Below are positions 42,170 through 44,036 of a DNA stretch of 52,238 bases, piece by piece; the stretch's first letter is position 1; every line of letters starts with the position of its first letter. The stretch is from Rhodopseudomonas faecalis. Its GTDB lineage: Bacteria; Pseudomonadota; Alphaproteobacteria; Rhizobiales; Xanthobacteraceae. The stretch spans positions 1 to 52,238 of the forward strand of contig NZ_QJTI01000027.1 of assembly GCF_003217325.1 (NCBI RefSeq). The letters run 5' to 3'. The position numbers and the translations under genes were made by a program. Under the pieces are notes generated by a model. The model ran no database searches. It was not told the DNA's origin and was given only the letters and a program-made list of their open reading frames with translations.

Positions 42170-42985
42170 ATGGCCAAGCTACGTTCACCCGCACGGGACA
42201 AGGCAACCGCGGCGCGGGCCAAGGTCAAGAAAGCCGCAATGGCGCCCAAGAAGGCGTCCACGAAGGCGCCGCGCAAAGCCGCGCCCAAAGCGGTCCCCGC
42301 ACCCAAAGCTGCGTCGAAAACGTCGGCGCCGCAAACGTCGCCACTTGGCGTGCGCAGCAGCGCGCGGCGTGCCGAGGTGCGTTATCATCACCACGCGCTG
42401 CGCGATACGCTGCTGGTCGCGGCCGAACGGATTTTGGAGCGCGACGGCCTTGCCGGGCTGACGCTGCGCGCCACCGCGCGCGAGGCCGGCGTGTCGCACG
42501 CGGCGCCGACCCATCATTTTGGCGATCTCACCGGGCTGGTCAGCGATCTGGCGGCGATCGGCTTTGCGCGGTTCAACGCGGCGATGGTGGCGGCCGCGGC
42601 CGGCGCGGCCACGCCGCTCGAACAGGCCGCGGCAAGGGCGCGGGCTTATCTTGCTTATGCGCGCGCCCATCCGGCGATGTATCTACTGATGTTTCGCACC
42701 GAGCGGCTCGATCTCAATCGGCCGGCGCTGCGCGATGCCACCAACGCCGCCTTTGCCGGGCTGACCGGCACGATCGGCGATCTGCGCCGCGAGGCGGTCG
42801 ACAGCCAGTCGCTGTCGCTCGATCAGGCCGCCGGCATCGTGCGCGCTTGGTCGCTGGTGCATGGCTATACCACGCTGCTGCTCGATGGCCGGCTCGCGGA
42901 AATCCTGCAGCGGCTGCCGCCTGGCGTAGATGCCGAAACGCTGTTTGGCGCGGTGCTGACCGCGCCATTGCGGCCCCCGGCCTGA
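42170..42985 (+). CDS. TetR-family regulator with a histone-H1-like N-terminal tail
   Basis: 271 residues. The first ~57 residues are a Lys/Ala/Pro tail (KVKKAAMAPKKASTKAPRKAAPKAVPAPKAASK). Then comes a TetR DNA-binding domain (RDTLLVAAERILERDGLAGLTLRATAREAGVSHAAPTHHFGDLTGLVSDLAAIGF, helix-turn-helix about 98-117) and a ligand-binding C-terminal domain (ARARAYLAYARAHPAMYLLMFRTERLD). The tail is unusual in this family and would add non-specific DNA binding. It is divergent from the carotenoid oxygenase, which is the likely target. The next gene also carries an H1-like tail. Confidence 0.88.
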   Translation: MAKLRSPARDKATAARAKVKKAAMAPKKASTKAPRKAAPKAVPAPKAASKTSAPQTSPLGVRSSARRAEVRYHHHALRDTLLVAAERILERDGLAGLTLRATAREAGVSHAAPTHHFGDLTGLVSDLAAIGFARFNAAMVAAAAGAATPLEQAAARARAYLAYARAHPAMYLLMFRTERLDLNRPALRDATNAAFAGLTGTIGDLRREAVDSQSLSLDQAAGIVRAWSLVHGYTTLLLDGRLAEILQRLPPGVDAETLFGAVLTAPLRPPA

Positions 42986-43103: not shown

Positions 43104-44036
43104 ATGCCCCCGATTCCAGAGTCCAAGCCGTATCGCATCGGCCGGTCCCGCACCGGGCTCGGCCTGTTTGCCACCAAGCCGATCAAAAAAGGCACCAAGA
43201 TCATCCGCTATTTTGGGCCGCTGCTGGACGCGCATAACGAGAAACACGACGCGATCGAGAACAAGTATCTGTTCCAGATCAACAAGCGCTGGACCATCGA
43301 CGGCTCGATCCGCAAGAACATCGCGCGCTACATCAACCATTCCTGCAAGCCGAATGCGGAGTCGGACGTCAATGTCCGCAAGCGCAAGGTGATCATCCGC
43401 GCGATCAAGAAGATCGAGCCGGGCGACGAGATCAATTATGACTACGGCACCGAATATTTTAAGGCGTTCTTGAAGCCGATCGGCTGCAAATGCGACGCCT
43501 GCGAGAAGAAGCGCGCCAAGAAGGCGGCCGAGGCCAAGGCCGAACGCGCCGCCGACAAGGCCAAATCGAACAACGGCAAGGCCAGCAGCGCCAAGACCAA
43601 GAAGGCCAAGGGCGCCGTGGCCAACAAGGTCAAGACCAAGGCCAAGGCCAAGGCCAAGACCGCTGCCGACAAGGCCAAGTCCAAAACCACCAAGTCCAAA
43701 ACCACCAAGTCCAAAACCACCAAGTCCAAAACTACCAAGACCAAAACCACCACGACCAAAGCTGCCAACGGCAAGGCGGCTGGTAACAGCAAGGCATCGA
43801 CCAAGACCAAGGCTGTCACCAAGACCAACACGGTCAGCAAGGCCAAGTCCTCGTCTAAGTCCTCGTCTAAGTCCTCGTCCAAATCCTCGTCCAAGGCCAA
43901 GTCATCGTCCAAGGCTTCGTCGAAGGCCACAGCGTCAGCACACACCACCGCCAGCAAGGCGAAGGCGGCCACCAAACCCGCCACCAAGGCGAAGCAGGCC
44001 AAGCGCCCCGCCAGCAAGCGCGCACGCAAAGCGTAA
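43104..44036 (+). CDS. SET-domain protein methyltransferase with H1-like tail
   Basis: 310 residues. Residues 8-125 form a SET domain: RIGRSRTGLGLFATKPIKKGTKIIRYFGP, RYINHSCKPNAES (cofactor-binding NHSCxPN at 78-84) and GDEINYDYG (107-115). A post-SET cysteine cluster follows (C128, C130, C133 with C81). SET enzymes transfer methyl groups from S-adenosylmethionine to protein lysines. Residues 135-310 are a histone-H1-like tail of Lys, Ala, Ser and Thr with SKTTK and SSSK tandem repeats; it is a plausible self-substrate and DNA binder. No clear ribosome site. No SET enzyme of this sort has a settled role in these bacteria. Confidence 0.9.
   Translation: MPPIPESKPYRIGRSRTGLGLFATKPIKKGTKIIRYFGPLLDAHNEKHDAIENKYLFQINKRWTIDGSIRKNIARYINHSCKPNAESDVNVRKRKVIIRAIKKIEPGDEINYDYGTEYFKAFLKPIGCKCDACEKKRAKKAAEAKAERAADKAKSNNGKASSAKTKKAKGAVANKVKTKAKAKAKTAADKAKSKTTKSKTTKSKTTKSKTTKTKTTTTKAANGKAAGNSKASTKTKAVTKTNTVSKAKSSSKSSSKSSSKSSSKAKSSSKASSKATASAHTTASKAKAATKPATKAKQAKRPASKRARKA
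43677..43751 (+). repeat. 15-bp coding tandem repeat (SKTTK units)
   Basis: Five head-to-tail copies of AAGTCCAAAACCACC; the first three are identical, the fourth and fifth carry one change each. The unit is in frame, so copy-number change would alter tail length without a frameshift. Confidence 0.9.
43845..43892 (+). repeat. 12-bp coding tandem repeat (KSSS units)
   Basis: Four copies of AAGTCCTCGTCT with one or two changes in the last two. They are in frame in the SET protein tail, 93 bp after the 15-bp array. Confidence 0.88.

What the first reader, a model, noticed from the sequence alone, without database searches (positions are those of the whole stretch)
43104..44036. Bacterial SET-domain methyltransferase fused to a repetitive histone-H1-like tail
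The SET core is complete (NHSCKPN, GDEINYDYG, post-SET cysteines) and is followed by 175 residues of Lys/Ala/Ser/Thr repeats like eukaryotic H1 or bacterial AlgP/HctB. An enzyme that methylates lysine joined to a lysine-rich DNA-binding tail suggests automethylation that tunes nucleoid binding, or methylation of other basic proteins. Enzyme and substrate would then be one polypeptide, a possible minimal bacterial chromatin modifier. The domain calls are direct; the role is inference.
Basis: partly seen in the sequence, partly recalled or inferred. Interest (0 to 1): 0.8.

Follow-up and report, generated by a model that had tools for sequence, protein, structure and literature searches.

The report
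Bacterial lysine methyltransferase with histone-like tail
A Rhodopseudomonas-like bacterium carries a complete histone-type lysine methyltransferase with a long lysine-rich tail; in some relatives the neighbouring gene makes a histone-H1-like protein, which hints that some ordinary bacteria chemically mark their own DNA-packaging proteins.

Summary
ORF 43104-44036 (310 aa) is a complete SET domain (PF00856 E 6.7e-25; nearest solved structures are MLL-family methyltransferases) followed by 177 residues with 29% lysine. It is the only SET match in its genome (by nearest named relative, Rhodopseudomonas). The tail is a lineage trait: 16 of 16 genomes of the genus have the SET gene with a Lys-rich tail, and 77 of the 80 nearest named loci have a long basic tail. 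Its first part is a conserved basic segment, predicted helical; the rest is disordered and repeat-bearing, and longest here of all clade loci read. "H1-like" is compositional only: no H1/HC2 profile match, no globular H1 domain.

New: in some relatives a gene upstream of SET encodes a Lys-rich, H1-like protein ending in DUF6321. Of 391 family genomes 37 show DUF6321 (one below cut-off); 36 of these have SET, and in all 36 the two lie within 2.6 kb on one strand. They diverge in step. The window's genome shows no DUF6321.

Best reading: an endogenous methyltransferase tethered to the nucleoid that acts on basic DNA-binding proteins, tail automethylation being a secondary possibility. Activity, DNA binding and substrate are inferred.

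The parts
43104..44036 (+). whole gene: SET-domain protein lysine methyltransferase with lysine-rich tail, 310 aa
43104..43502 (+). SET catalytic core plus post-SET zinc cysteines (residues 1-133); GLGLFA, YINHSCKPN, INYDYG, CKCDAC
   Evidence: PF00856 full length; MLL-family SETs nearest in PDB by sequence and by predicted fold
43503..43667 (+). proximal tail (about residues 134-188): basic segment predicted as helix, begins EKKR, start conserved in the clade
43668..44033 (+). distal tail: disordered K/S/T/A-rich low complexity; contains 15-bp x5.7 (43675-43760, KSKTT) and 12-bp x4.4 (43843-43895, KSSS) tandem repeats
42170..42985 (+). upstream TetR-family regulator with a Lys/Ala-rich N-terminal extension; a homologue lies upstream of SET on the same strand in 59 of 80 related loci (in others it may lie beyond the fetched flank); functional link to SET unproven

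Best explanation
An endogenous bacterial protein-lysine methyltransferase that works on the nucleoid. The SET core binds SAM and methylates lysines, most likely to the mono- or dimethyl state because a tyrosine (Y112) sits at what I recall as the Phe/Tyr switch position of INYDYG. The basic helix and the long lysine-rich disordered tail hold the enzyme on DNA or RNA by charge. Its main targets are lysine-rich nucleoid proteins in trans; in some relatives the natural candidate is the H1-like DUF6321 protein encoded upstream. In the window's genome, where no DUF6321 was found, the targets would be other basic proteins (the Lys/Ala tails of TopA and TetR regulators are candidates) and, secondarily, the enzyme's own tail. 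Shown: architecture, intact catalytic motifs, conservation of the basic tail, gene linkage in relatives. Inferred: catalytic activity, product state, DNA binding, substrates, biological role.
For: Complete SET with invariant motif residues and an MLL-like predicted fold. Purifying selection on the core: 11 synonymous against 1 nonsynonymous codon differences to R. palustris JSC-3b, while the tail changes freely (of 140 aligned codons 23 synonymous, 27 nonsynonymous; 44 codons unaligned) yet stays lysine-rich. Lys-rich tail in 16 of 16 genus members, basic tail in 77 of 80 related loci. H1-like DUF6321 gene upstream of SET in 36 of 36 genomes that have both (in G353 the DUF6321 match is below cut-off). 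The two genes diverge in step (Mantel r 0.84, 0 of 2000 permutations reach it; 34 loci, 26 distinct pairs). The one DUF6321 genome without a SET match has a DUF6321 protein lacking the N-terminal motif and the Lys-rich linker. Precedents: cpnSET reported to bind Hc1/Hc2 and methylate Hc1, Go1-SET to methylate archaeal MC1-alpha (review PMC3980110, passages); a Lys-rich H1-like domain is indispensable for HupB association with the nucleoid (PMC5676037, abstract); a C-terminal domain with Lys repeats gives TopA high processivity (PMC7398561, abstract).
Against: No biochemical evidence for any step. 354 of 391 family genomes show no DUF6321 (at most 14 candidates per genome were scored there, so a few may be missed), and SET keeps its tail without it, so DUF6321 cannot be the sole substrate. 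Linkage may be mostly co-descent from one event: the pair is co-inherited, so the 36 cases are not independent. C. trachomatis NUE did not methylate Hc1 (PMC2904774, passages). A role of the window's tail as replacement for a lost partner is not supported: the naive test gives p 2e-5, but the test on phylogenetically independent pairs gives median p 0.625 and has little power.
Confidence: 0.45

Rival explanations
1. One reading: the tail is the enzyme's own principal substrate; automethylation of many tail lysines tunes its DNA binding, so enzyme and 'histone' are one polypeptide.
For: The tail has 52 lysines in cis. Chlamydia NUE automethylates, K209/K210 being implicated, and mutants in these methylate histones less (PMC2904774 passages). 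In the window's genome no separate H1-like DUF6321 gene was found, and its tail is the longest of the clade loci read.
Against: No methylation data. Tail length is not shown to track loss of the DUF6321 partner once relatedness is allowed for (little power). In the alignment of homologues the distal tail keeps its composition but not its positions, so no defined site looks selected.
Confidence: 0.15
2. The tail is only a generic electrostatic tether (or solubility/RNA-binding tail); the SET domain methylates a non-chromatin protein such as a ribosomal or metabolic protein.
For: Lys/Ala extensions occur on unrelated proteins in this genome: TopA, two TetR regulators. SET was found in 100 of 149 family genomes, DUF6321 in 7 of 149.
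Against: Does not by itself explain why the H1-like DUF6321 gene, where found with SET, sits near it in 36 of 36 genomes, unless by co-descent.
Confidence: 0.25
3. The distal tail is a by-product of in-frame repeat slippage with little function; the functional part is the SET core plus a short basic helix.
For: 12- and 15-bp tandem repeats; a big length change between near-identical cores (177 against 147 residues at 99% core identity); tails of only 22 and 26 residues in two of 80 loci, one of which (L109) lacks the zinc motif.
Against: Charge is kept while sequence and length turn over: net charge +13 to +52, K+R 29-58% in 138 rows.
Confidence: 0.08
4. A secreted nuclear effector of the NUE/RomA kind that methylates histones of a eukaryotic host.
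For: Closest solved relatives are eukaryotic histone methyltransferases; several pathogen SETs are described as effectors (PMC3980110, PMC10117894; passages).
Against: Found in 16 of 16 genomes of the genus, which I know as free-living, and in relatives such as Nitrobacter; the Dot/Icm AnkI model is matched at 40 bits against a cut-off of 550. Secretion signals were not tested.
Confidence: 0.03

Closest known systems
Chlamydial SET proteins cpnSET and NUE
   Same: Bacterial SET methyltransferases; the organisms have H1-like proteins Hc1/Hc2; cpnSET reported to methylate Hc1, NUE to automethylate, K209/K210 being implicated (passages)
   Different: From intracellular pathogens, NUE secreted; no long Lys-rich tail was described in the passages read; NUE did not methylate Hc1; here the H1-like candidate is a different protein (DUF6321) and a gene neighbour of SET in some relatives
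Archaeal Go1-SET (Methanosarcina mazei) with MC1-alpha
   Same: Prokaryotic SET acting on an endogenous DNA-binding protein (PMC3980110 passage)
   Different: No fused lysine-rich tail mentioned in the passage read; different substrate protein
MLL/KMT2-family SET domains (MLL1, MLL3, MLL4)
   Same: Nearest sequences and folds in the PDB; Tyr at the switch position of ELxYDY (recalled)
   Different: About 30% identity over the core; MLL partner proteins and host histones belong to eukaryotes (recalled)
Mycobacterial HupB and actinobacterial TopA with lysine-repeat tails
   Same: Lys-rich H1-like or Lys-repeat domains fused to a DNA-acting bacterial protein (abstracts)
   Different: Those are a nucleoid protein and a topoisomerase, not a lysine methyltransferase

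Membership tests
SET-domain protein lysine methyltransferases (PF00856) | profile match over the curated cut-off | tested here: met
   88 bits against 22.4, positions 1-105 of 105
SET-domain protein lysine methyltransferases (PF00856) | pseudoknot motifs RFINHxCxPN and ELxFDY (as given in PMC3980110) | tested here: met
   RYINHSCKPN and EINYDY present; motifs in 168 of 169 clade loci
SET-domain protein lysine methyltransferases (PF00856) | SET fold | tested here: met
   AlphaFold2 blocks over residues 1-150 at pLDDT 65-96; Foldseek best MLL1 SET E 1e-10, TM by target 0.66
SET-domain protein lysine methyltransferases (PF00856) | SAM-dependent lysine methylation | not testable with these tools
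   needs an enzyme assay
Histone H1 / HC2 (PF07382) | HC2 profile match by the tail | tested here: not met
   no HC2 match for this protein at E <= 0.001; the own-genome HC2 search listed only TopA and a TetR, both below cut-off
Histone H1 / HC2 (PF07382) | globular (winged-helix) H1 domain | tested here: not met
   no such Pfam match at E <= 0.001; tail predicted as one helix, then disorder
AlgP-like regulators | AlgP orthology | not tested
Secreted SET effectors (NUE, RomA/AnkI) | match to the AnkI/LegAS4 equivalog model | tested here: not met
   40.1 bits against cut-off 550
Secreted SET effectors (NUE, RomA/AnkI) | secretion by a type III/IV system | not tested
   no secretion-signal prediction was run
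SET + H1-like DUF6321 gene pair (seen in some relatives) | DUF6321 gene within 3 kb upstream on the same strand | tested here: not met
   no DUF6321 in the window's genome (where no control rang); the same profile does ring in same-genus genomes G067, G345 and G412

The most novel reading that the evidence does not exclude
A home-grown bacterial chromatin-modification system in free-living Alphaproteobacteria: a nucleoid-tethered SET 'writer' with its own H1-like tail, ancestrally paired with an H1-like DUF6321 nucleoid protein as substrate. In lineages that lack the separate H1-like gene, such as the window's, writer and basic tail remain as one polypeptide.
Probability: 0.25. Interest if true: 0.88.

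Novelty: new variant of a known kind. Interest (0 to 1): 0.6.

Why it matters
Whether bacterial SET enzymes mark the bacterium's own nucleoid proteins, rather than a host's histones, is unsettled: reports for chlamydial Hc1 conflict (PMC2904774 and PMC6426960 passages). The genus here has one SET match per genome (16 of 16), includes culturable laboratory strains (recalled), and in some species offers a linked H1-like candidate substrate. That makes a direct test possible: delete one gene, read the methyl-lysine proteome, assay one defined protein. It also shows that a lysine-rich tail is a lineage-wide feature of this enzyme and not an oddity of one strain.

Tried and rejected
Partner loss explains tail length: tails are shorter where DUF6321 is present (median 84 aa in 42 rows, 96 aa in 96 rows without; Mann-Whitney p 2e-5). 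With phylogenetically independent pairs (10 on well-supported branches) the median p is 0.625, and with so few informative pairs the test can hardly reach 0.05. Left as unsupported. Row states: for loci of the genome search, presence anywhere in the genome; for the named loci, presence in the fetched flank only (4 kb or less). Rows under 70% core identity or without the zinc motif (L109, which has DUF6321), the DUF6321-centred loci L142-L173, and six DUF6321 genomes whose SET had no locus were not in the tree; L102, which has only a truncated Lys-rich ORF with the same N-terminus, counted as lacking it.

HC2/H1 homology: only compositional. SWIB, which a chlamydial paper says often co-occurs with SET (PMC6426960 passage): no match in the own genome, but no control rang either, so absence is not shown.

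DUF6321 fold: AlphaFold2 model poor (mean pLDDT 57.5), so no fold search was made. DUF6321 region in PDB: best E 0.064, not credible. In plasmids and named phages: no match to the L034 protein at 1e-5. In IMG/VR: 14 loci, mostly ~110-aa proteins, in L218-L220 part of longer frames; no SET in these loci by a profile of the core.

Operon signals: terminator-like sites no more than in shuffles; one promoter-like site, on the other strand. Literature: a review states that SET genes have been identified in Bradyrhizobium japonicum among others (PMC10117894 passage), so the gene as such is in print; no paper on the tail, on a Rhodopseudomonas SET protein or on DUF6321 was seen in the listings. The B. 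diazoefficiens Tn-seq main text names no SET gene (find; supplements not available). Subscription papers are not held.

Full report
What is there. The ORF at 43104-44036 (+) encodes 310 aa. Residues 18-115 match PF00856 SET over the full profile (E 6.7e-25). The best solved relatives by sequence are MLL4 (E 4.4e-18), MLL3 and MLL1. An AlphaFold2 model from 37 sequences gives a mostly confident core (ten-residue blocks over 1-150 at pLDDT 65-96), one helix at 131-188 and disorder from about 190 to the end; overall mean pLDDT is 67. Foldseek places the model with MLL1/MLL3/MLL4 SET domains (best E 1e-10). It is the only SET match in the window's genome.

Catalytic integrity. Across 37 aligned sequences the invariant columns include G18, G20, Y36, R75, N78, H79, C81, P83, N84, Y112, Y114 and the post-SET cysteines C128, C130, C133. 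In 169 loci with at least 70% core identity (some genomes counted twice), GLGLFA is in 169, NH[SA]C.PN in 168, E[IL].YDYG in 168, and a C.C..C ending in 167. The role of each residue and the Phe/Tyr switch at Y112 are recalled knowledge of SET enzymes, not tested here; distances in the model were not measured.

The tail. After C133 come 177 residues with 29% K, 23% A, 32% S+T, 3% D+E, net +52. The other five frames have at most 4% K. Its distal part holds a 15-bp unit x5.7 and a 12-bp unit x4.4. Against JSC-3b the core has 11 synonymous and 1 nonsynonymous codon changes; of 140 aligned tail codons 23 differ synonymously and 27 nonsynonymously, with 37 and 7 further codons unaligned. So the tail's sequence and length turn over fast while its charge is kept. 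The start of the tail is the conserved piece; 133 of 169 loci begin EKKR.

Distribution. SET was found in 16 of 16 genomes of the genus, one match each, 100 of 149 of a family draw and 30 of 190 of a class draw, the window's genome included each time. One scan of named genomes matched 319 stretches, 175 of them relatives; the best 80 were kept, and include Rhodopseudomonas, Bradyrhizobium, Nitrobacter, Afipia and Tardiphaga. Of these 80, 77 have a tail of at least 55 residues with K+R of at least 28% and more than twice D+E; the exceptions are L095 (acidic share too high), L100 and L109 (short). In 138 clade rows (123 different core DNAs) the tail is 26-177 aa (median 92) with K+R 29-58%. The 11 more distant family members among the first loci (46-61% identity) have short tails of 7-57 aa, 9 of them with more R than K. 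The window has the longest tail of the clade loci read.

A neighbour in some relatives. In R. infernalis HC1 (L034) the gene directly upstream of SET encodes a 267-aa protein: an N-terminal basic motif conserved in its relatives (NPRKRAGKASKHL...PYPNLVDNM), a Lys/Ser/Ala linker, and a DUF6321 domain (PF19846, E 3.2e-27). DUF6321 was then found in 37 of 391 family genomes, 36 of them over the cut-off (7 of 149 in an earlier draw, all seven found again). SET is present in 36 of those 37. In all 36 SET lies on the same contig and strand, downstream, with 201-2573 bp between the two domain matches; the one below-cut-off DUF6321 (G353) is among them. The 37th genome (G027), without a SET match, has a short DUF6321 protein lacking the N-terminal motif and linker. 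Beyond the family the domain was weak or unseen: 1 of 289 class genomes, below cut-off, and in a phylum draw 4 of 398, three being the same family and one below cut-off. At most 14-19 candidates per genome were scored in the large searches, so counts of presence are lower bounds. The held library has no paper with the word DUF6321.

How to weigh that linkage. On a tree of SET core DNA, presence/absence of DUF6321 changes at least 15 times (for named loci only the flank was scored), so it is labile, yet SET and DUF6321 distances are strongly correlated (Mantel r 0.84; 0 of 2000 permutations; 34 loci, 26 distinct pairs). The simplest reading is an old pair that often loses the H1-like member, though the count of changes cannot tell gain from loss; some copies look broken or cut short (L107/L198, L187). 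Co-descent at one site would by itself keep the two adjacent, so 36 of 36 is suggestive, not proof, of joint function. The window's genome shows no DUF6321 (where no control genome rang; the same profile does ring in three same-genus genomes).

The tail in context. A search of the own genome with the HC2 profile found only below-cut-off matches, at the Lys/Ala tail of topoisomerase I (L140) and of a TetR regulator (L141). The TetR gene just upstream of SET has a Lys/Ala-rich N-terminal extension. Lysine-rich extensions thus recur on DNA-acting proteins here, which favours tethering to nucleic acid. Elsewhere such a domain is required for HupB association with the nucleoid (PMC5676037 abstract), and one with lysine repeats gives TopA high processivity (PMC7398561 abstract).

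Mechanism and precedent. cpnSET was reported to interact with Hc1/Hc2 and methylate Hc1, and Go1-SET methylates MC1-alpha (review PMC3980110; first part and passages). NUE did not methylate Hc1, but automethylates, with K209/K210 implicated and activity lowered when they are changed (PMC2904774 passages). I therefore rank: nucleoid-tethered writer of basic proteins in trans (0.45), tethered enzyme with a non-chromatin substrate (0.25), automethylation as main role (0.15), distal tail as slippage by-product (0.08), host effector (0.03). None of the catalytic, binding or substrate steps has been shown for this protein.

Novelty. Bacterial SET proteins are well known, in Bradyrhizobium too (PMC10117894 passage), and lysine-rich tails and SET/histone-like pairs each have precedents. 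Their fusion as a lineage-wide trait, and the linked H1-like DUF6321 gene in relatives, were not seen in the listings of the searches named, which cover open-licence PMC papers only. I rate it a new variant of a known kind.

Noticed in passing
window 42170-42985 (+): TetR-family regulator with a ~60-residue Lys/Ala/Pro-rich N-terminal extension; in the 12 relatives whose upstream TetR N-terminus could be read out by the script (of 59 with a TetR) it looks basic as well.
   Followed up: partly
L141:865-1758 (own genome, C1): A second TetR regulator with a Lys/Ala-rich C-terminal tail that weakly matches the HC2 profile, below cut-off.
   Followed up: no
L140:1516-3111 (own genome, C7): DNA topoisomerase I with a long Lys/Ala-rich C-terminal tail, resembling the lysine-repeat TopA of actinobacteria.
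   Followed up: no
window 43675-43760 and 43843-43895: In-frame 15-bp and 12-bp tandem repeats in the tail; strain JSC-3b, 99% identical in the core, has 30 fewer tail residues, so tail length probably varies through such repeats.
   Followed up: partly
L215-L228 (IMG/VR contigs): DUF6321 occurs in viral contigs, mostly as ~110-aa proteins, without SET in the fetched stretch; the bacterial H1-like protein may share its C-terminal domain with phages.
   Followed up: partly
L107:3320-3895, L198:769-1344, L187:2617-3093: DUF6321 genes beside SET that look broken or shortened, as if the H1-like gene were being lost.
   Followed up: no
window 43442-44029 (-): A 195-aa frame stays open antisense to the tail, probably a mechanical effect of its repeats; no sign that it is a gene.
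   Followed up: no
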